Part shown: in pieces, positions 50,746 through 63,652 of the stretch | Layout of the letters: every line of letters begins with the position of its first letter | How positions within the stretch are numbered: position 1 is the first letter of the stretch | Virus record (IMG/VR): IMGVR_UViG_3300042922_000923 | Location: 62,001-126,000 of that record | Length of the DNA stretch: 64,000 nt | Strand: one strand, 5' to 3' | Source: a virus | Program-made: the position numbers and the translations under genes | The notes under the pieces: model-generated | Told to the model about the DNA's origin: nothing | Database searches by the model: none | The model's input: the letters and a program-made list of their open reading frames with translations, nothing else

Positions 50746-51876
50746 ATGGAAAATTCAGATGTAAATTCAAGCTTATCAAATGAAGAGCTTTTAAGATTAT
50801 ACAGAAGTACAAATAATAGAAAATACTTAAATTTACTTTTTGCAAATGTAGAGAACCTAGTTTACTATGCGTGTAGTCATACTTCTTCTGGAAAAAAGCT
50901 TATGACTGTATATAAATTATCACTAGAAGAAGTTAAAAGTATAGCTTTTTTGGGAGTAAGTAAGATAATAAATACTTATTCTTTTGAGAGAAACATAAAA
51001 TTTTCTACTGCTATGTATAGTTATATAATTCGTGAATTTCATAAAAGTTTCGATTATTACAATAGAAAAAATAGGGAACTTAATTTAGACAGTTTACAAG
51101 GTTCCTGTTCTCAAAGGGATGATTTTGCTACACCTGTAGCAATGTCTGAACAATTAAAGGATGAAACTATTGATATAGAAGAACATGTATTAGACGAAAT
51201 AGAATACTCTGAATATTCTTTAAAATTAAATAATGCTCTAGAAGTTATGTCTGAACGCTCTAAATTTATAATACATGAATATTTTTATAATAATAAAACC
51301 AATGCAGACATAGCTAAAGTACTAAACTTTAATGCAAACTCAGTCAGTAGGTTAAAGATTGAAATACTAAAGGAATTAAAAAAGATGATTATAGATCCAG
51401 AGTATATAGAGATAGCTAAGACACACGAAAAGGATAAATCACGTGGAGTACTAAGAAATCTTCCAAAAGATTATAAAAAGTATACTAAGCTACTAAGTGA
51501 CAAAGAAAAAAAGGCTTTAAATATGAGACTTAATGGAAAGACATATGAAGAAATTGGAAAGAAACTTAGTATACATCAAGGTACAGTTGGTTCTATTCTT
51601 ACTAGAGTAGTAAATAAACTCGGTGAAGCAACGATAAGAGATGCTGGTAAATGTAAAACTAAAGAATTTTATGAGACTCTATATAAGAAGTATCCAAAGT
51701 ATCTAAATGAAATAAGCTTAACAGACCAGAGGCTATTAGAGTTTAAGTATAAAGAAAATAAAAAATATTCTGAAATAGCAAAAATGTTAGATAAAAAGGA
51801 AACTGCTGTTTGCGTTTTAATTCGTAACGCTGAGTATAGATTTGGGAACGTTATTATGAGATATGAAGAAATATAG
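50746..51876 (+). CDS. Sigma-70-like factor with extra C-terminal HTH domains
   Basis: 376 residues, GGAGG 7 bases before the ATG. Region 2 is visible at about 60-120 (FERNIKFSTAMYSYIIREFH), the core-binding and -10-melting region. Region 4-like HTH follows near 170-215 (NADIAKVLNFNANSVSRLK). Two further HTH units occur at about 250-295 (YEEIGKKLSIHQGTVGSIL) and 325-370 (YSEIAKMLDKKETAV). It probably redirects host polymerase to the phage late promoters. The three tandem HTH units are unusual. Confidence 0.8.
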   Translation: MENSDVNSSLSNEELLRLYRSTNNRKYLNLLFANVENLVYYACSHTSSGKKLMTVYKLSLEEVKSIAFLGVSKIINTYSFERNIKFSTAMYSYIIREFHKSFDYYNRKNRELNLDSLQGSCSQRDDFATPVAMSEQLKDETIDIEEHVLDEIEYSEYSLKLNNALEVMSERSKFIIHEYFYNNKTNADIAKVLNFNANSVSRLKIEILKELKKMIIDPEYIEIAKTHEKDKSRGVLRNLPKDYKKYTKLLSDKEKKALNMRLNGKTYEEIGKKLSIHQGTVGSILTRVVNKLGEATIRDAGKCKTKEFYETLYKKYPKYLNEISLTDQRLLEFKYKENKKYSEIAKMLDKKETAVCVLIRNAEYRFGNVIMRYEEI

Positions 51877-57050: not shown

Positions 57051-57079
57051 TTGACTACGTGTATTATTGGTAGTATACT
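57051..57079 (+). promoter_or_regulatory. Early sigma-A-type promoter 1
   Basis: TTGACT, 17 bases, TATACT. Upstream lies an A/T block like an UP element. Directly after the -35 box is ACGTGTA, shared with the two other early promoters. Confidence 0.82.
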
Positions 57080-57171: not shown

Positions 57172-57200
57172 TTGACAACGTGTAAGATTGGGATTATAAT
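57172..57200 (+). promoter_or_regulatory. Early sigma-A-type promoter 2 (full consensus)
   Basis: TTGACA, 17 bases, TATAAT, an exact consensus. ACGTGTA follows the -35 box and an A/T block TATTTTTAAAAAAG precedes it, as in promoter 1. It would drive the whole ribozyme-punctuated operon. Confidence 0.9.
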
Positions 57201-57250: not shown

Positions 57251-57350
57251 GTTCTTTGACAATTGAATTAAGATTTTAGAAATAGAAATTTTGCGTTTCT
57301 ATTAAGTTTAAATTGAAACTAAAATCTTTTAAATTAAATTAAATTCTTTA
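57251..57350 (+). promoter_or_regulatory. Structured 5' leader with leader-complementary segment
   Basis: AAGATTTTAG (57270-57279) pairs with CTAAAATCTT (57319-57328) around an inner perfect hairpin AATAGAAA/TTTCTATT (57281-57303) and a weaker short hairpin. Immediately after, 57334-57349 reads TTAAATTAAATTCTTT, the exact reverse complement of the AAAGAATTTAATTTAA leader found before several downstream genes. It may act in cis or trans on those leaders, or as an attenuator. Confidence 0.5.
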
Positions 57351-57377
57351 TAGATTCATTATACAGTATATTCTGTA

Positions 57378-57697
57378 TAGTGAGTTTATATAAGGGTATT
57401 CAAAATTTAAATTATTGGAGTTGATTTTATGAATAAATTACAATTTTTAGATAGAGAATACATAAAAAATGAGGTTATAAGACTTTTTAAAAATTCTATA
57501 TATAAGCCTTTTAAATTTTCAGTTAATTTATTTAATAATACAGTGTGGGTATATTGTAACATACTAGAAACAAATAAATTCAGCGAAAAAATGATTAATA
57601 TAGAATTACAGTTTACTAATTCAAATGAATTAAAGTTTGGAAAAGTAATTGAAAGTGCATTTTAATACCTATTGAATACCCTTATACAAACTCACTA
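57378..57697. repeat. 26-base inverted repeat flanking a small gene
   Basis: The arms at 57378-57403 and 57672-57697 match in inverted orientation at 25 of 26 positions. They enclose exactly one gene (57429-57665) and its ribosome-binding site. In RNA they would form a long stem with the gene as loop; in DNA they resemble the ends of an invertible or inserted cassette. Confidence 0.75.
57429..57665 (+). CDS. Small hypothetical protein inside inverted repeat
   Basis: 78 residues, TTGGAG before the ATG, basic and beta-rich. First gene after the early promoters. No ribozyme follows it directly; a short hairpin ACTCACTAGTGAGT that resembles the start of a pistol ribozyme does. Unknown function. 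Confidence 0.68.
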   Translation: MNKLQFLDREYIKNEVIRLFKNSIYKPFKFSVNLFNNTVWVYCNILETNKFSEKMINIELQFTNSNELKFGKVIESAF

Positions 57698-57725
57698 GTG
57701 AGTAAATAAGAATAAAAGGAGATGC

Positions 57726-57995
57726 ATGTATATGTTATATGTTACAATGACTGATAAATTTATGAGTGGTTGGGGGCCTTGTGAAAATAAGATTAATAAA
57801 TTAATATTTGAGTGTGAAAATAGAGAAGAGGCAGACATAGTTATGACTAATGCAGAAAATAGAGGCGATATGAAAAACATAAATTTAGCAACTAAAAAGC
57901 CTTATTACTCAACCTCTAGATACTACGCTCAAACTAAAAATAAAGAGGAATACCCTTCATGGTATAAACAAGGGTTTTTCAAAAAAGATAACTAG
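57726..57995 (+). CDS. Conserved phage/mobile-element small protein
   Basis: 89 residues; ATG at 57726 or 57732, both near AAGGAG. The pattern TMTDKFMSGWG...KINKLIFEC...NAENRGDMK...YYSTSRYY...YPSWYKQGFF is familiar from many uncharacterised phage and mobile element proteins of Gram-positive bacteria, but I know no function. Its TAG stop lies inside stem I of the first hammerhead ribozyme. Confidence 0.75.
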   Translation: MYMLYVTMTDKFMSGWGPCENKINKLIFECENREEADIVMTNAENRGDMKNINLATKKPYYSTSRYYAQTKNKEEYPSWYKQGFFKKDN

Positions 57996-58050
57996 CCTGA
58001 CGAGTCTTTGAAAATTAAGACGAAACTGGAGAAGCTTCTCCAGTCGCTAG
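57992..58050 (+). ncRNA. Hammerhead ribozyme 1 (type I)
   Basis: Stem I CTAGC/GCTAG (57992-57996, 58046-58050); core CTGACGA (57997-58003); stem II GTCTT/AAGAC (58004-58008, 58017-58021); GAAA (58022-58025); stem III CTGGAGA/TCTCCAG (58026-58043); then TC with predicted cleavage between C58045 and G58046. All invariant hammerhead nucleotides are present. The stop codon TAG of the upstream gene (57993-57995) is part of stem I. Confidence 0.93.
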
Positions 58051-58086
58051 TAATAGCAAGAATTTAATTTAAGGAGATGCATTAAC

Positions 58087-58449
58087 ATGAGTTTAAAAGA
58101 AAGATTTGAGGAAGTTCAAGAAAATATTAATAATTATGACAGAACAGAGGCTGTTGAAAACTTAAAGAGTATTGCTTCAGATTATGGACAAGAAAGAGAA
58201 GTTGATAGCTTTATTCATACCGATGACGTTGACGATTTTGTGGAAAGGCGTTTTCAGTCAGGAGGTTGGCAAGGTGTAGCATGTTGTTTAACTGACTTAA
58301 TTCATAATCAAAGTGATGACTATTATAATATAGATGGTTACGAAAATTTAGAGTTAGTTACAGTCGATTTGCTACAAAATACTCTAGATGATTTAAAAAG
58401 AGCTTTATCTGATGAACTTGAAGAAGAAGAGGAAGAAGAACTCGACTAG
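58087..58449 (+). CDS. Acidic small protein, stop inside pistol ribozyme
   Basis: 120 residues, AAGGAG before the ATG, between hammerhead 1 and pistol 1. Contains SGGWQGVACCLTDLIHN and a run of ten acidic residues near the C-terminus. Acidic small proteins of this kind are common as DNA mimics or host-takeover proteins in phages, but nothing specific is recognised. Final codons lie in pistol P1. Confidence 0.72.
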   Translation: MSLKERFEEVQENINNYDRTEAVENLKSIASDYGQEREVDSFIHTDDVDDFVERRFQSGGWQGVACCLTDLIHNQSDDYYNIDGYENLELVTVDLLQNTLDDLKRALSDELEEEEEEELD

Positions 58450-58511
58450 ACGAGTATAAACAGTGTTTAGGTCTAGTGCGTTGTAGAGGCTATAAAGCTT
58501 CTACAGGTACA
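58440..58511 (+). ncRNA. Pistol ribozyme 1
   Basis: P1 ACTCG/CGAGT; P1 loop ACTAGA pairs with TCTAGT (58472-58477) as pseudoknot P2; ATAAACAG joins them; GCG precedes the predicted cut between G58480 and T58481; P3 is TGTAGA/TCTACA, followed by AGG. The loop and its partner both change relative to other copies, keeping pairing. TAG at 58447-58449 is the stop codon of the upstream gene. Confidence 0.92.
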
Positions 58512-58540
58512 AAGAATTTAATTTAAAAGGAGATGTTTTT

Positions 58541-59170
58541 ATGAATATGACAGCTGAAACAACTAAATATATAAACTTTGGTGATGAAAACCCACTTAGC
58601 TATTATGGTATCTGGTTAAGAAAAGATTCTGATAACGAAAAGTGTTTTGATATTGTAAAAGTAGATAATTTAGAGTGGTGCAGTGGTTCGACTGAAAATA
58701 GATATAGGCTTGAAGAAGGTTCTATTGACATTACTGATGATTGGATTAACTGGTCTGAGGTCTATAATTGTTATGACTTAAATGATGAATCTAGTGATGA
58801 AGAAAAGGCAATTTCAGCAGTTCAAAATTATACTATTCTTGAATTTGGTTCTACAAAAGACGTAAAAACAACAAGAGAAGCTTTGAAGTTCCTAGAGGAA
58901 CATGAAATAGTCCTTGGTGAAACTGTAGAAGATTATGAAAAGAGAATTGCTTCTGAGGTATTTGACATTTTAAACGATGCAGTAATGACTCTAGGAACTA
59001 ATACAAATGATTCCTTTATAGAAGATGAAGAGGAACTAAAGGAAGCTCAAAAGTTATTAAAACAACTTGAAGAGGAAGAAGAGAATCAAGAAGAATTATG
59101 TGATAAATACAATTATGAACTTGATGACATTAAAGAGTATATAAGCGATACTTATGGAATGAAATATTAA
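58541..59170 (+). CDS. Acidic protein of ribozyme operon
   Basis: 209 residues, AAAAGGAG before the ATG. Very acidic, with a C-terminal coiled coil. The N-terminal part (NPLSYYGIWLRKDSDN, later DVKTTREALKFLEEH) suggests a folded domain, unrecognised. Between pistol 1 and pistol 2; the stop is one base before pistol 2 P1. Confidence 0.72.
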   Translation: MNMTAETTKYINFGDENPLSYYGIWLRKDSDNEKCFDIVKVDNLEWCSGSTENRYRLEEGSIDITDDWINWSEVYNCYDLNDESSDEEKAISAVQNYTILEFGSTKDVKTTREALKFLEEHEIVLGETVEDYEKRIASEVFDILNDAVMTLGTNTNDSFIEDEEELKEAQKLLKQLEEEEENQEELCDKYNYELDDIKEYISDTYGMKY

Positions 59171-59171
59171 A

Positions 59172-59241
59172 ACTCGACTATGCGAGTATAAATAGACCTT
59201 AAGCATAGTGCGTTATGGAGAATAACTTCTCCATAGGTGGT
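59172..59241 (+). ncRNA. Pistol ribozyme 2
   Basis: P1 ACTCG/CGAGT; loop ACTATG pairs with CATAGT (59204-59209), a compensatory change; ATAAATAG present; GCG then predicted cut between G59212 and T59213; P3 ATGGAG/CTCCAT; then AGG. Confidence 0.92.
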
Positions 59242-59280
59242 AGTAATACCAAAAAGAATTTAATTTAAGGAGACGATATT

Positions 59281-59661
59281 ATGAAACTTGAAAAAGCTTT
59301 GGAAAATTTTAAAAATGAAAATAAGGAAAATTGGTTAATTACTTGTGTTGTTTGTGACATAGAGGATAAAGAACCAGAAGACCAACAAAGTTATATACAT
59401 GACGTAATTAATAATGGTTGTGAAAGTGGTATAGTGGGGTATCTTATATACTACACAGATACAGACGAATTTTTTGCTAAACATTATAAAGATATTCTTG
59501 AATTGATAAACAATTATAGAGAGGAAACTGGAGAAGTACCAAACCTTTCTGAGTGGAATGCAGAAAAATTATCATGGTTTGCATATGAAAGAGCTATGTA
59601 TCTATTAAATGAATACTTAGAAGGATACGATATATCAGACGAAGATGAAGAACTCGACTAG
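59281..59661 (+). CDS. Acidic protein, stop inside pistol ribozyme 3
   Basis: 126 residues, AAGGAG before the ATG. Predicted mostly helical, acidic throughout. Contains EVPNLSEWNAEKLSWFAYER. Similar to small ardA-like or DNA-mimic proteins only in charge. The final LD-stop codons are encoded by pistol P1. Confidence 0.72.
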   Translation: MKLEKALENFKNENKENWLITCVVCDIEDKEPEDQQSYIHDVINNGCESGIVGYLIYYTDTDEFFAKHYKDILELINNYREETGEVPNLSEWNAEKLSWFAYERAMYLLNEYLEGYDISDEDEELD

Positions 59662-59726
59662 GCGAGTATAAATAGAACTTAAGCCTAGTGCGTTGGGGAT
59701 AAGTGCGTATAGATCCCCAGGTGTAA
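59652..59726 (+). ncRNA. Pistol ribozyme 3
   Basis: P1 ACTCG/CGAGT; loop ACTAGG with CCTAGT (59684-59689); ATAAATAG; GCG, predicted cut between G59692 and T59693; P3 TGGGGAT/ATCCCCA with a larger loop; AGG follows. Stop codon TAG 59659-59661 lies in the loop that forms the pseudoknot. Confidence 0.93.
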
Positions 59727-59754
59727 GAATTTAATTTAAAAGGAGAAGATTATC

Positions 59755-60093
59755 ATGAGTCAAAATTCAGTAGTAGAAGGAACAGTAATTAACTTATATG
59801 TGTTTGATTCAGCAGGAATACATGAAAAGCTTGCTAAAAAGTATAATGCATTAGTTAGATTCAGAAATAAGAAAACAATCCTTGAAAATGGTTGTTTAAA
59901 TGCTGAAATAGAGTGCATTAGATACGTGAGAAAAGCAATAGAAAAGTCTTTTTGGGACACTAGAGATAGCATAGAGATAGTTACTAAGAACTATGGAACT
60001 TTTACAACTAGTAAGCCTGAGGAAATAAAAATTGATAGAAAGTATAATACTATAGAGTTTGGGAACTACTTCAATATACTTGATTGTAACTAG
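59755..60093 (+). CDS. Small protein of ribozyme operon
   Basis: 112 residues, AAAAGGAG before the ATG. Basic N-terminal half, beta-rich C-terminal half. Unlike its neighbours it is not acidic. Family unknown. The TAG stop is part of hammerhead 2 stem I. Confidence 0.7.
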   Translation: MSQNSVVEGTVINLYVFDSAGIHEKLAKKYNALVRFRNKKTILENGCLNAEIECIRYVRKAIEKSFWDTRDSIEIVTKNYGTFTTSKPEEIKIDRKYNTIEFGNYFNILDCN

Positions 60094-60150
60094 CCTGACG
60101 AGTCTTTGAAAATTAAGACGAAACTGGAGAAGTCATTCTCTAGTCGCTAG
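60090..60150 (+). ncRNA. Hammerhead ribozyme 2 (type I)
   Basis: Stem I CTAGC/GCTAG; core CTGACGA (60095-60101); stem II GTCTT/AAGAC; GAAA (60120-60123); stem III CTGGAGAA/TTCTCTAG around GTCA; TC, predicted cut between C60145 and G60146. Stem III differs from copy 1 but still pairs (one G-U), while the core is unchanged. Confidence 0.93.
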
Positions 60151-60188
60151 AAGATAGCAGAGAATTTAATTTAAAAGGAGAAGATAAT

Positions 60189-60734
60189 ATGTTAAAAATT
60201 AATGTAAAAGGTATTGAAATAGCAATAGACTATAGTAAAGGTATAGAAGAAACTATGCTAATTACAGCTAATGGAAAATATATTCATAACTTAGAGTTAA
60301 TTATTCAAGAAGATTACATTCTCTTTACATGGACATGTAGACAACATAAAGAGACAGTAATAAATATTAATAATGGACAACACATTGATAAAAACCTAGC
60401 TAGTTTTAATGATTTCTTAGCTGATTATTTTACTATTACAAAAGAGAATAGTCTAGATGCAGATTGTGTTATGAACAGTCATAGGGTTGCACTAAAAGAA
60501 ATTATTGTAATTATGGAACAAGTTTTTATGCTTATAACTAAGGATTTATGCAAAAAAGAAGAACAGTTTATGCTAGAACTTAAAGACGATACTGCTAAAA
60601 ATTCACTTCTAGAAGCAATAAGAATGTATCAACATTGGTTAAGTGAAGCGAATATGTCAGCTGATGAAGAAGAAGAGACAGAGGGTTATGCTGATTCACT
60701 AGAAGATATAGAAAAACAATTAACACACGACTAG
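60189..60734 (+). CDS. Hypothetical protein, stop inside pistol ribozyme 4
   Basis: 181 residues, AAAAGGAG before the ATG. N-terminal beta-rich part (TWTCRQHKETVININNGQH), then helices and an acidic C-terminus. No family recognised. Final HD-stop codons lie in pistol 4. Confidence 0.72.
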   Translation: MLKINVKGIEIAIDYSKGIEETMLITANGKYIHNLELIIQEDYILFTWTCRQHKETVININNGQHIDKNLASFNDFLADYFTITKENSLDADCVMNSHRVALKEIIVIMEQVFMLITKDLCKKEEQFMLELKDDTAKNSLLEAIRMYQHWLSEANMSADEEEETEGYADSLEDIEKQLTHD

Positions 60735-60793
60735 GCGTGTATAAATAGAGTTTAAGCCTAGTGCGTTATGGAGAATAACTTCTCCATAGGTAC
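60725..60793 (+). ncRNA. Pistol ribozyme 4
   Basis: P1 ACACG/CGTGT, a compensatory change from ACTCG/CGAGT; loop ACTAGG with CCTAGT (60757-60762); ATAAATAG; GCG, predicted cut between G60765 and T60766; P3 ATGGAG/CTCCAT; AGG. Stop TAG at 60732-60734. Confidence 0.93.
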
Positions 60794-60824
60794 AAAGAAT
60801 TTAATTTAAAAGGAGAAGATTATT

Positions 60825-61448
60825 ATGAAAAATTATATGCAAACTGAGACTTATATGGAACATTGTATAGAGGAATTTTATGACATATTAGAACAAGAAA
60901 GAGAATCTAAATTACAGGACTTTCTAGACGTTGAATTTAATAAAAGTACTGAATTAGATATACTTTTAACTTTTGATGCTTTAATAGTACTATGTCGTGA
61001 TAAGTATAAAGACTTCTTTGAAAAAACAAAAAAAGAATATGTTCATAGTTTATGTACTACTCTATCTGATGAAAATTGTGCAGAAATATTTAATGCTTAT
61101 CGTGAGTACGAAACCGTTGAGTATACTAAGTATGAAGATGGAACAGACGTAACTTATTGTAATTATTGTGGAAAGCCTCTACTTAGAGATTCTGACATAA
61201 GATTTATAGAAGGTGATGGTTCTTATTGCTACGAACAAATAAAAGAAGTAAAAGATATATCAATAACTTGTATTGGTAAAGAATTATTGAACTGTGGTTA
61301 TTCAGAGAAGGATATAATGTTTATGATAGGACCAGATTACAATGAATATTCAGAGGCTATATCTAGTGAAGAAGGTTTTGATAGTTATAACTTCTTATGT
61401 GAAAATGGTTATGCAATGCCAGAAATATTCTGTACAACTGCTGAATAA
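60825..61448 (+). CDS. Zinc-ribbon-containing protein of ribozyme operon
   Basis: 207 residues, AAAAGGAG before the ATG. Helical N-terminal 95 residues, then YCNYCGKPL and SYC, likely a zinc-binding turn. Unknown function. Confidence 0.72.
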   Translation: MKNYMQTETYMEHCIEEFYDILEQERESKLQDFLDVEFNKSTELDILLTFDALIVLCRDKYKDFFEKTKKEYVHSLCTTLSDENCAEIFNAYREYETVEYTKYEDGTDVTYCNYCGKPLLRDSDIRFIEGDGSYCYEQIKEVKDISITCIGKELLNCGYSEKDIMFMIGPDYNEYSEAISSEEGFDSYNFLCENGYAMPEIFCTTAE

Positions 61449-61456
61449 TATAAGAA

Positions 61457-61525
61457 ACACGACTAGGCGTGTATAAATAGAGTTTAGGCCTAGTGCGTTA
61501 TGGAGAATAGCTTCTCCATAGGTAC
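61457..61525 (+). ncRNA. Pistol ribozyme 5
   Basis: P1 ACACG/CGTGT; loop ACTAGG with CCTAGT (61489-61494); ATAAATAG; GCG, predicted cut between G61497 and T61498; P3 ATGGAG/CTCCAT; AGG. Nearly identical to pistol 4, implying a recent duplication or conversion. Confidence 0.92.
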
Positions 61526-61556
61526 AAAGAATTTAATTTAAAAGGAGAAGATTATT

Positions 61557-61982
61557 ATGAATACTGTTGTAGTAAATAGCTATGAATCTAATTTTACAGT
61601 GGAGTTTGAAAACTTACAAAAGGTTATAAAAAAAGAAGGTTGGCAGAGTGTAAAATACTTCTTAGACAATTACACTTATGACGATGGAGAAGACATTTAT
61701 AATATATGTAGGTCTAATGGTTATGTTATAGATGAAAGTTTGACTAACGAGTGTCTAAGAAAATTAATTAAAGAAGATTATATTGTTAGAAATGAAAATC
61801 CTTGTTTTTTAAAACATGATTATCTTATAACAATATATAGCTATAAAGATGGAATGTATATAACTGATTGTAGTATTGATGCAGGAGAATTTTCAAGTAC
61901 TATTGAGGAAGTTGAAAATATGCTACTTAGTGCTGGATTCAAAAGCATAGGATTACAAACTCGACTAGGCGAGGATAAATAG
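61557..61982 (+). CDS. Hypothetical protein ending inside pistol ribozyme 6
   Basis: 141 residues, AAAAGGAG before the ATG. Contains EGWQSVKYFLDNYTYDD, similar in style to the GGWQGV segment of the 58087 protein, possibly a distant relative. The last eight codons are encoded by the first 24 bases of pistol 6; the stop is the TAG of ATAAATAG. Confidence 0.72.
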   Translation: MNTVVVNSYESNFTVEFENLQKVIKKEGWQSVKYFLDNYTYDDGEDIYNICRSNGYVIDESLTNECLRKLIKEDYIVRNENPCFLKHDYLITIYSYKDGMYITDCSIDAGEFSSTIEEVENMLLSAGFKSIGLQTRLGEDK

Positions 61983-62034
61983 GACTTAAGCCTAGTGCGT
62001 TAGATAGGATCTATATGGTTCTATCTAGGTGTAA
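61959..62034 (+). ncRNA. Pistol ribozyme 6
   Basis: P1 CTCG/CGAG (the outer A-T pair is lost, G at 61974); loop ACTAGG with CCTAGT (61991-61996); ATAAATAG; GCG, predicted cut between G61999 and T62000; P3 TAGATAG/CTATCTA; AGG. It overlaps 24 coding bases, in a frame where the loop TAG is not read as stop. Confidence 0.9.
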
Positions 62035-62063
62035 GAATTTAATTTAAAAGGAGATGTATTAAT

Positions 62064-62525
62064 ATGAGTAAAGTTTATGTTGTAGAATGTCCAGAATTTA
62101 ATGATTTTTTAGGTATGTTTGAAGAGGAAGAACTACGAGAAGAGACTTGTAGTATTTGTGGTAGTTCTTTATTTGTAAGAGATACTTGCACTGGTGATGA
62201 ATATATTTGTGCTGATTGTGGTGATAAGATTGTAAAAAATCATATGGAAGCAAAGGAGCTTGATAGTGTTACAGGATACCCAGAGTGGATACTAGCAATA
62301 TTAAGAGAGTCTGTTAACATTGATAGATATGATACGCAACATGATGAAGAATTTAATACTAAGTGGTCTAAAGACGAAGTGTTTGATTCTGTTATGAGGT
62401 ATGAAGCAACGTATAATCCTACTAAAATTAAGGAATTTATAAGAGATATATATGGCGTAGATTTATTTACTAAAAATCCAAAAGATGACACTAAATTATG
62501 TCTTGACACTTATAAACTACGTTAA
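62064..62525 (+). CDS. Zinc-ribbon protein
   Basis: 153 residues, AAAAGGAG before the ATG. CSIC near residue 30 and CADC near 50 form a C4 zinc ribbon (with CTGDEY between them). The rest is acidic and helical. Possibly binds nucleic acid or polymerase; no specific family. Confidence 0.73.
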   Translation: MSKVYVVECPEFNDFLGMFEEEELREETCSICGSSLFVRDTCTGDEYICADCGDKIVKNHMEAKELDSVTGYPEWILAILRESVNIDRYDTQHDEEFNTKWSKDEVFDSVMRYEATYNPTKIKEFIRDIYGVDLFTKNPKDDTKLCLDTYKLR

Positions 62526-62535
62526 AAGTGTGAAG

Positions 62536-62604
62536 AGTCGTTGCAACGACTATAAACAGACCTTAGGTTGCAAGCGTTGAAGAGGTTAACCTCTTCAGGT
62601 GGTA
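62536..62604 (+). ncRNA. Pistol ribozyme 7
   Basis: The most divergent copy: P1 AGTCG/CGACT; loop TTGCAA with TTGCAA (62568-62573); ATAAACAG; GCG, predicted cut between G62576 and T62577; P3 TGAAGAGG/CCTCTTCA; AGG. P1, P2 and P3 have all changed while pairing is kept. Confidence 0.93.
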
Positions 62605-62633
62605 AGAATTTAATTTAAAAGGAGAAGATAAAT

Positions 62634-62897
62634 ATGAAGGAAATAAAGACGTTGATAAGAATTGCTAAGGACTGGGAATATGACTTCAAAGGTGACTTAT
62701 TAGAAGGTATTTTAGATAATGAGAGTATTAAATCATTTTTAGACACTCTAATTGATGAATGGATACCTGAATGGAAAGAAGAAAATCCTGAAAATGAAGA
62801 GATGTATGATAGATATAGTTGCAGACTAGAAGCTTTAAATAAAGAAGTAATAGAAGAAGAATATGCAGTTATTCAAGAACTTATAGCATTATCTTAG
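62634..62897 (+). CDS. Small acidic protein
   Basis: 87 residues, AAAAGGAG before the ATG. Acidic and helical (IDEWIPEWKEENPENEEM). No ribozyme separates it from the next gene, unlike its neighbours. Unknown. Confidence 0.7.
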   Translation: MKEIKTLIRIAKDWEYDFKGDLLEGILDNESIKSFLDTLIDEWIPEWKEENPENEEMYDRYSCRLEALNKEVIEEEYAVIQELIALS

Positions 62898-62914
62898 ATG
62901 TAGAGGTGAGTATT

Positions 62915-63124
62915 ATGAATAAGTCTAATTGGTTAATTGAAGGTCTAGAGTATGCTAAAAGGAATAAAATAGTTAGTTTTGTTATTGTAGGCTGCAAGTT
63001 AAAATATGCAACAACTTATCCAGTAGAAGGAAGTTTTAAGCACATAATCGACTTAGAAAACAATAGCGAAACTGTAATTCCATTAAAGGGAATAATAAAG
63101 AGTGGAATTTATAACATTGGATAA
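62915..63124 (+). CDS. Small basic protein
   Basis: 69 residues from the ATG at 62915 with AGAGGTGAG upstream; an in-frame GTG at 62906 is inside the site. Basic, beta-rich. Lies before the third early promoter and lacks the common leader. Unknown. Confidence 0.65.
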   Translation: MNKSNWLIEGLEYAKRNKIVSFVIVGCKLKYATTYPVEGSFKHIIDLENNSETVIPLKGIIKSGIYNIG

Positions 63125-63142
63125 ATAAATATTTTTTTACCA

Positions 63143-63171
63143 TTGACTACGTGTAAAAATGGGAGTATAAT
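63143..63171 (+). promoter_or_regulatory. Early sigma-A-type promoter 3
   Basis: TTGACT, 17 bases, TATAAT, with ACGTGTA after the -35 box and TATTTTTTT upstream, like promoters 1 and 2. It restarts transcription inside the ribozyme region. Confidence 0.85.
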
Positions 63172-63204
63172 AAAAGCATATTAAGAGATTGGAGATGTTG
63201 ATAA

Positions 63205-63582
63205 ATGAGTAATATAACAGAAATTTTAGAAAGAGAATATAAAAAGGCTACATGTGACAAGAAAGTGCTAGTGGAAAAAGCTACAGCAAGACTAAGAACT
63301 CTTAGCATCAATTTCAAATCATTTTTAAGAACTAAACAGTTACCAGCAAGAGAGTTTCCTAAAAGCTTATTCCATTATCAAGGTGTACAACATAGCTTTA
63401 ATTTTAAAATAAAGGATTCAGGAAATACTATTGAGGTTTGTATGTATACTATCGACATTGATAATTCAAATAATAATAGTACACAAACGTATAAAATAAG
63501 TAGTTTAAGTGATATTGATAACGAAAAATTTGATTCATGGGTATTATCTAATGCAATGGAACAATTCTTTAGAGAAAATTAA
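63205..63582 (+). CDS. Hypothetical protein under early promoter 3
   Basis: 125 residues, TTGGAG before the ATG. Basic helical N-terminus (TARLRTLSINFKSFLR), then a beta-rich part. Family unknown. The stop lies directly before pistol 8 P1. Confidence 0.7.
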   Translation: MSNITEILEREYKKATCDKKVLVEKATARLRTLSINFKSFLRTKQLPAREFPKSLFHYQGVQHSFNFKIKDSGNTIEVCMYTIDIDNSNNNSTQTYKISSLSDIDNEKFDSWVLSNAMEQFFREN

Positions 63583-63652
63583 ACTCAACTAAGTGAGTAT
63601 AAATAGTGGTTAGGCTTAGTGCGTTGGAGAGGTATAGTGCTTCTCCAGGTCC
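63583..63652 (+). ncRNA. Pistol ribozyme 8
   Basis: P1 ACTCA/TGAGT; loop ACTAAG with CTTAGT (63615-63620), again compensatory; ATAAATAG; GCG, predicted cut between G63623 and T63624; P3 TGGAGA/TCTCCA; AGG. Confidence 0.93.

What the first reader, a model, noticed from the sequence alone, without database searches (positions are those of the whole stretch)
57992..63652. Ten self-cleaving ribozymes punctuate one early phage operon
Seen: two type I hammerheads and eight pistol ribozymes in about 5.7 kb, almost one per gene gap, all on the coding strand. Known: both classes cleave their own RNA, leaving 2',3'-cyclic phosphate and 5'-OH ends, and single copies occur in phages. Inferred: the early transcript is cut into single-gene mRNAs, so that each gene's dose and stability are set independently and the ends resist exonucleases that prefer a 5' monophosphate or a free 3'-OH. 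An array of this size with two classes mixed is, to my knowledge, unusual.
Basis: partly seen in the sequence, partly recalled or inferred. Interest (0 to 1): 0.95.

Follow-up and report, generated by a model that had tools for sequence, protein, structure and literature searches.

The report
Ribozymes that cut a phage operon
A phage operon carries ten self-cutting RNA elements of two unrelated types, one at nearly every gene boundary, and related and unrelated phages have similar arrays, which suggests that phages use them to turn one long message into separate single-gene messages with near-identical front ends.

Summary
Rfam finds eight pistol ribozymes (53.8-68.3 bits; cut-off 34.5). A descriptor search finds exactly two complete type I hammerheads, and none in 40 shuffles. 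Ten of 13 gene gaps carry one, all on the coding strand. Compensatory changes hit 19 of 21 pistol base pairs, including all six of the pseudoknot; catalytic residues are intact in 8/8.
New: after all ten predicted cuts the downstream RNA starts with nearly the same leader (5' UTR 33-43 nt). Six upstream stop codons lie inside the ribozyme, the other four within 13 nt. A related phage (terminase 79% identical) has seven pistols with the same leader, but its orthologous genes are reordered, and two genes behind hammerheads here are behind pistols there. Other phages carry 6 hammerheads + 4 pistols, 5 + 3 and 3 + 4; another mixes pistols with twisters.
Most likely function: class-independent cutting of the transcript into single-gene mRNAs with a uniform leader. 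Clustered hammerheads cutting prophage transcripts were described in 2011, so this is a larger, mixed-class variant of a known kind. Nothing was tested at the bench.

The parts
57172..57200 (+). promoter-like TTGACA-17-TATAAT ahead of the operon (a second, TTGACT-17-TATACT, at 57051)
   Evidence: 12 of 12 consensus match; motif TTGACNACGTG...GGANTATAAT shared with the relative L213
57335..57708 (+). operon front: strong leader hairpin and 37-nt inverted arms that enclose gene A (57429-57665, 78 aa)
   Evidence: z -5.5; inverted arms
57726..57995 (+). gene B, 89 aa (phrog_5423); its TAG stop lies in stem I of hammerhead 1
57991..58051 (+). hammerhead ribozyme 1, type I; predicted cut 58045|58046
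   Evidence: sub-threshold in Rfam
58087..58449 (+). gene C, 120 aa; TAG stop inside pistol 1
   Evidence: ortholog L213:8969-9340, preceded there by a pistol
58440..58512 (+). pistol 1; predicted cut 58507|58508
   Evidence: 60.5 bits
58541..59170 (+). gene D, 209 aa
   Evidence: ortholog L213:7745-8353; phrog_3460
59172..59242 (+). pistol 2; predicted cut 59237|59238; product can start with hairpin UGGUA-GUAA-UACCA
   Evidence: 68.3 bits
59281..59661 (+). gene E, 126 aa (DUF7222); TAG stop inside pistol 3
   Evidence: ortholog L213:6576-6971
59652..59726 (+). pistol 3; predicted cut 59721|59722
   Evidence: 65.1 bits
59755..60093 (+). gene F, 112 aa; TAG stop in stem I of hammerhead 2
60090..60150 (+). 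hammerhead ribozyme 2, type I; predicted cut 60145|60146
60189..60734 (+). gene G, 181 aa; TAG stop inside pistol 4
   Evidence: ortholog L213:8455-8817, preceded there by a pistol
60725..60795 (+). pistol 4; predicted cut 60790|60791
   Evidence: 64.5 bits
60825..61448 (+). gene H, 207 aa (weak zinc-ribbon matches)
61457..61527 (+). pistol 5; predicted cut 61522|61523
   Evidence: 63.9 bits
61557..61982 (+). gene I, 141 aa; frame runs through pistol P1 and ends at the UAG of the AUAAAUAG core
61959..62034 (+). pistol 6; predicted cut 62029|62030
   Evidence: 59.1 bits
62064..62525 (+). gene J, 153 aa (TFIIB-type zinc ribbon, below Pfam cut-off)
62536..62604 (+). pistol 7; predicted cut 62599|62600
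   Evidence: 64.1 bits
62634..63124 (+). genes K and L, no ribozyme between them here (in L213 the order is L-pistol-K)
63143..63171 (+). second promoter-like site TTGACT-17-TATAAT ahead of gene M
63205..63582 (+). gene M, 125 aa
63583..63654 (+). pistol 8; predicted cut 63649|63650; leads gene N (63687-64244, running past the window; match to the beta-clamp C-terminal domain just below cut-off)
   Evidence: 53.8 bits

Best explanation
The ten elements are active self-cleaving ribozymes, and the unit that selection keeps is [ribozyme + short AU-rich leader with a strong Shine-Dalgarno], placed at or directly behind each stop codon. A long transcript starts near 57.2 kb (and a shorter one near 63.2 kb), no convincing terminator interrupts it, and it is cut at each element. 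Every downstream gene then starts its own mRNA with almost the same leader (5' UTR 33-43 nt), and every upstream mRNA ends in a folded ribozyme with a 2',3'-cyclic phosphate. The effect is insulation: the translation start of each gene no longer depends on its neighbour, so genes can be shuffled freely. It does not matter which ribozyme class makes the cut. Shown here: the elements, their fold conservation, position, common leader, permuted gene order and class swaps. Inferred: in vivo cleavage, single-gene mRNAs, insulation, and that ribosome loading on the leader protects the 5'-OH end.
For: Eight Rfam pistols and two full hammerheads. Over 15 pistols of two phages 94.9% of cells pair (shuffled 71.2%); 19/21 pairs, pseudoknot 6/6, have two-sided changes; no shuffle reaches the covariation score. 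Catalytic G33, G40-C41-G42, purine 32 and the G|U cut site present in 8/8. Leader common to 10/10. Upstream stop within -13 to +21 nt of the ribozyme start in all eight pistols, and inside stem I of both hammerheads. Relative G030: 7 pistols, same leader, order E-L-K-D-G-C instead of C-D-E-G-K-L, genes C and G behind pistols instead of hammerheads, terminase 79% identical. Mixed arrays with other leaders: G052 6 hammerheads + 4 pistols, G041 5 + 3, G094 3 + 4; G026 pistols + twisters; class swaps between G041 and G052. Clustered prophage hammerheads do cut ~2 kb polycistronic RNAs in vitro, a triple set also in E. coli (PMC3088659).
Against: No cleavage, no transcript and no 5' ends were measured. 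In Bacillota a 5'-OH mRNA made by a ribozyme can be an RNase J1 substrate, so cutting could lower rather than insulate expression. Three gaps lack a ribozyme. In both hammerheads the 3' arm of stem I can instead form a hairpin with downstream bases, and the MFE fold of hammerhead 2 prefers it, so these two may cleave less well. In G030 one pistol has lost C41 and another most of its P2 stem (alignment), so not every copy need be active.
Confidence: 0.7

Rival explanations
1. The repeats are mainly recombination cassettes: similar ribozyme-leader blocks between genes are sites for homologous exchange, and cutting is secondary or merely tolerated.
For: Gene order of six orthologs is permuted between the window phage and G030; the leader is a repeated conserved block; gene order also differs between G041 and G052.
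Against: A DNA recombination block needs sequence identity, not RNA pairing; the pistols diverge in sequence while keeping base pairs and catalytic residues. Two unrelated ribozyme classes share no sequence for recombination yet fill the same slot.
Confidence: 0.1
2. The cuts destabilise downstream messages: as with glmS, the 5'-OH product is fed to RNase J1, so the array shortens the life of the transcripts and limits expression to a short burst.
For: In B. subtilis the glmS 5'-OH product is degraded by RNase J1 (PMC3997798), and a 5'-trimming activity acts on it (PMC11780869). The host is probably Bacillota (terminase relatives).
Against: Every product carries a strong Shine-Dalgarno leader close to its 5' end, the feature that protects leaders in Bacilli; three products of the window can begin with a hairpin. 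Destabilisation needs no uniform leader. The same design occurs in phages with quite different leaders and probably other hosts.
Confidence: 0.1
3. Translation-gated cleavage: because the stop codon sits in or just before the first helix, a terminating ribosome blocks folding, so the RNA is cut only when the upstream gene is not being translated, and translation sets the operon's processing.
For: Stop codon inside 6 of 10 ribozymes and within 13 nt of the other 4; the +7 position in the P1 loop recurs in other phages (L213, L216, L218, L223, L245, L246).
Against: Compact genomes favour overlap anyway, and the pistol P1 loop and core easily supply stop codons. Many pistols elsewhere sit clear of the stop codon. 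No expression data.
Confidence: 0.06
4. The products are religated or circularised, giving spliced or circular phage RNAs.
For: Both ribozyme classes leave the ends used by RtcB-type ligases, and ribozymes flank single genes.
Against: No RtcB and no AAA_33 kinase domain in the record or seven other array-bearing records; an earlier study of clustered hammerheads looked for spliced or circular products and found none (PMC3088659).
Confidence: 0.03

Closest known systems
Clustered hammerhead ribozymes of prophages (Perreault et al. 2011, PMC3088659)
   Same: Several self-cleaving ribozymes flank single genes or short blocks in phage operons; cutting of the polycistronic RNA was shown in vitro and, for a triple set, in E. 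coli.
   Different: The clusters discussed there are hammerheads only (the one tested in E. coli is a triple); here ten elements of two classes, with one common leader, overlapping stop codons, and class swaps at orthologous genes.
Pistol ribozyme (RF02679; PMC4604425)
   Same: All eight match the family model, keep catalytic residues and lie among phage genes.
   Different: Mostly one or two per phage record in my survey; eight here.
RiboJ insulator of synthetic biology (PMC6206723)
   Same: Works like it: a self-cleaving ribozyme in front of the ribosome binding site gives each mRNA a defined leader.
   Different: RiboJ is an engineered part placed behind promoters; here the elements lie between genes of one operon and occur naturally in series. 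Likeness of function only; not tested.
glmS riboswitch-ribozyme
   Same: A ribozyme cut upstream of a gene leaves a 5'-OH mRNA in a Bacillota cell.
   Different: glmS is metabolite-controlled and its cut triggers decay; no ligand site is seen here (not tested).

Membership tests
Pistol ribozyme (RF02679) | Match to the family covariance model above its gathering score | tested here: met
   Eight hits, 53.8-68.3 bits against 34.5
Pistol ribozyme (RF02679) | P1, P3 and P1-loop pseudoknot, with covariation | tested here: met
   98.7%, 99.0% and 97.8% of cells paired; two-sided changes in 4/5, 6/7 and 6/6 pairs. P2 is weaker, 73%
Pistol ribozyme (RF02679) | Catalytic residues (32, G33, G40, C41, G42) and G|U cut site | tested here: met
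   8/8 in the window, position 32 being A or G (residues named in PMC6154101)
Pistol ribozyme (RF02679) | Self-cleavage | not testable with these tools
   needs RNA
Hammerhead ribozyme type I (RF00163) | CUGANGA...GAAA...UH core with stems I, II, III; stem I open | tested here: met
   stems of 6/5/8 and 5/5/9 pairs; none in shuffles
Hammerhead ribozyme type I (RF00163) | Rfam gathering score | tested here: not met
   21.1 bits against 34 for RF00163 and 24.7 against 48.5 for RF00008; the model also misses a perfect hammerhead in L217, so I do not treat this as defining
Hammerhead ribozyme type I (RF00163) | Loop I-loop II tertiary contact and self-cleavage | not testable with these tools
   contact not modelled; needs RNA
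Clustered ribozymes that cut phage polycistronic RNA (Perreault 2011) | Several ribozymes on the coding strand flanking single phage genes | tested here: met
   10 of 13 gaps, all + strand
Clustered ribozymes that cut phage polycistronic RNA (Perreault 2011) | One transcript spans the elements and is cut at them | not testable with these tools
   only promoter and terminator scans
RiboJ-like insulator | Uniform leader after the cut | tested here: met
   GAAUUUAAUUUAA(AA)GGAG in 9 of 10 products and a close variant after pistol 8; 5' UTR 33-43 nt
RiboJ-like insulator | Expression independent of upstream context | not testable with these tools
   needs reporter assays

The most novel reading that the evidence does not exclude
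Phages of unrelated hosts have separately evolved a general RNA punctuation system: any fast self-cleaving ribozyme (pistol, hammerhead, twister) joined to one phage-specific leader, set at each stop codon so that translation termination times the cut, and so that genes become freely interchangeable insulated modules.
Probability: 0.3. Interest if true: 0.9.

Novelty: new variant of a known kind. Interest (0 to 1): 0.78.

Why it matters
A 2017 review calls the biological role of bacterial hammerheads an open question with a persistent link to phages (PMC6155905). An array of ten, with two classes in equivalent positions and class swaps in front of orthologous genes, says that the cut itself matters and not the ribozyme that makes it. 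It gives ten predicted cut sites to test at once. If it works as proposed, it is a natural insulator system for operons and explains how phages reshuffle small genes without breaking their expression.

Tried and rejected
Pistol similarity as a tracer of whether a ribozyme travels with its upstream or downstream gene: no clear signal (same-downstream 0.68-0.70, same-upstream 0.43-0.72, others mean 0.62). Close relatives of gene D in viral contigs by peptide patterns: none confirmed. Annotated phages: a nucleotide search of the region hits only one single pistol, of Cellulosimicrobium phage DS1, among 50,697 records; protein relatives of D and E lie in Bacillus (Herelleviridae), Brevibacillus, Staphylococcus and Enterococcus phages, and the two neighbourhoods scanned (Brevibacillus phage Sundance, Bacillus phage BM15) have no pistols. 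Religation by phage RtcB or kinase: none found. The 5' hairpins on some products are more than chance (4 of 17; P = 2e-4 against the genome, 0.006 against shuffled leaders), but post hoc and partly from paralogs; kept as a hint only. Rfam freshwater-2, caiA and miRNA hits are sub-threshold and taken as chance.
Full report
What is there. The window is bases 62001-126000 of a 131,110-base virus record. Its terminase is about 49% identical to those of SPO1-like Bacillus phages, so it is a large tailed phage, probably of a Bacillota host (inference). Near the right end of the window 14 small genes (57429 to 64244) run on the + strand, behind promoter-like sites that match the vegetative consensus (12/12 at 57172, 11/12 at 63143). 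The scan shows no convincing rightward terminator until about 66.9 kb in window coordinates; its one hit inside the operon lies within gene J.

The ribozymes. Rfam finds eight pistols, far above threshold, and none elsewhere in the record. The two hammerheads fall below Rfam's threshold, but a descriptor asking for the full core and three stems finds exactly these two, and none in shuffled sequence. The pistols are not mere copies. Over the eight here and seven of a relative, base pairs are kept while bases change: 19 of 21 pairs show two-sided changes, all six pseudoknot pairs among them, and sliding the partners by one column drops pairing from 95% to 30-42%. All eight in the window keep the catalytic residues and the G|U cut site (residues as in PMC6154101).

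Anatomy of a junction. The ten predicted cuts leave 5' UTRs of 41, 33, 43, 33, 43, 34, 34, 34, 34 and 37 nt, all ending in nearly the same leader, AAGAAUUUAAUUUAAAAGGAG...AUG, whether a pistol or a hammerhead precedes it. In the stretches read, the leader in front of a gene is tied to the ribozymes. Upstream, six of ten stop codons lie inside the ribozyme: in the pistol P1 loop that forms the pseudoknot, in the AUAAAUAG core, or in hammerhead stem I. The other four lie within 13 nt. A ribosome that terminates there should cover the first helix (inference). Three products of the window and one of the relative begin with a perfect small hairpin at nucleotide 1. It uses the ribozyme's own 3' strand, so it could pull the product off after the cut, or compete before it.

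Relatives. G030 (39 kb, terminase 79% identical) has seven pistols in 4.3 kb and the same leader. Six orthologs (42-55% identical) stand in a different order, E-L-K-D-G-C. Genes C and G, behind hammerheads here, are behind pistols there. Two of its seven copies look damaged (C41 lost; P2 mostly lost, alignment), so decay happens. Among 177 viral records searched, 114 besides this one have a pistol; ten of those have three or more, and none exceeds the window's eight. Many records are fragments, so the counts are minima.

Other mixed arrays. G052 has six hammerheads and four pistols in about 4.9 kb, G041 five and three, G094 three and four. In G041 one hammerhead, near L217:3105, was read by eye and scores only 12.9 bits in Rfam; the other four pass the descriptor. 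G026 mixes pistols with twister-P5 ribozymes. Each phage has its own leader, repeated after both classes. G041 and G052 again differ in ribozyme class in front of orthologous genes. The same architecture with different leaders and different genes suggests convergence, or spread followed by replacement.

Mechanism. The simplest account is that each element cuts the transcript and that what is kept is the cut plus the leader. Two facts speak against a purely DNA role: pairing and catalytic residues are kept while sequence drifts, and unrelated classes fill the same slot. No RtcB and no AAA_33 kinase domain were found. That the RNA is cut in infected cells, that single-gene mRNAs result, and that this insulates the genes are all inferences.

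Novelty. Clustered hammerheads that flank prophage genes and cut ~2 kb polycistronic RNAs in vitro, one triple set also in E. coli, were published in 2011 (PMC3088659), and pistols are known to sit near phage genes (PMC4604425). My searches of the open-access library found no report of arrays of this size or mixture; most subscription papers are not in that library, so this is not proof of absence. I rate it a new variant of a known kind.

Noticed in passing
L129:2450-5400 (IMGVR_UViG_3300030102_003384, G094): In a mixed pistol/hammerhead array, six of the seven ribozyme hairpins of both classes, and a terminator-like hairpin after the array, contain the palindromic octamer GTTTAAAC (8 in 5.5 kb, 0.25 expected). 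Why unrelated hairpins share it is unexplained.
   Followed up: partly
window 57335-57708: Leader with a strong hairpin (z -5.5) and 37-nt inverted arms flanking gene A; in G030 (L213:6472-6532) the stem is present with altered sequence on both arms and no gene inside. A third stretch (GTGAGT) could pair alternatively, like a switch.
   Followed up: partly
L242:2001-4096: The terminase gene of the relative spans about 370 bases more than the 576-aa protein needs; an insertion such as an intron is possible.
   Followed up: no
window 50746-51876: A sigma factor-like protein (Sigma70 region 4) is encoded upstream of the array, consistent with staged transcription.
   Followed up: no
L213:8851-8926: In G030 the pistol before gene C has largely lost its P2 stem, and its product can start with a hairpin; the hammerhead before gene C in the window also yields a hairpin product. 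The hairpin may belong to gene C.
   Followed up: partly
L223:4556-4640 (G026): A third twister-like element below threshold seems to sit between two genes of the pistol/twister array.
   Followed up: no
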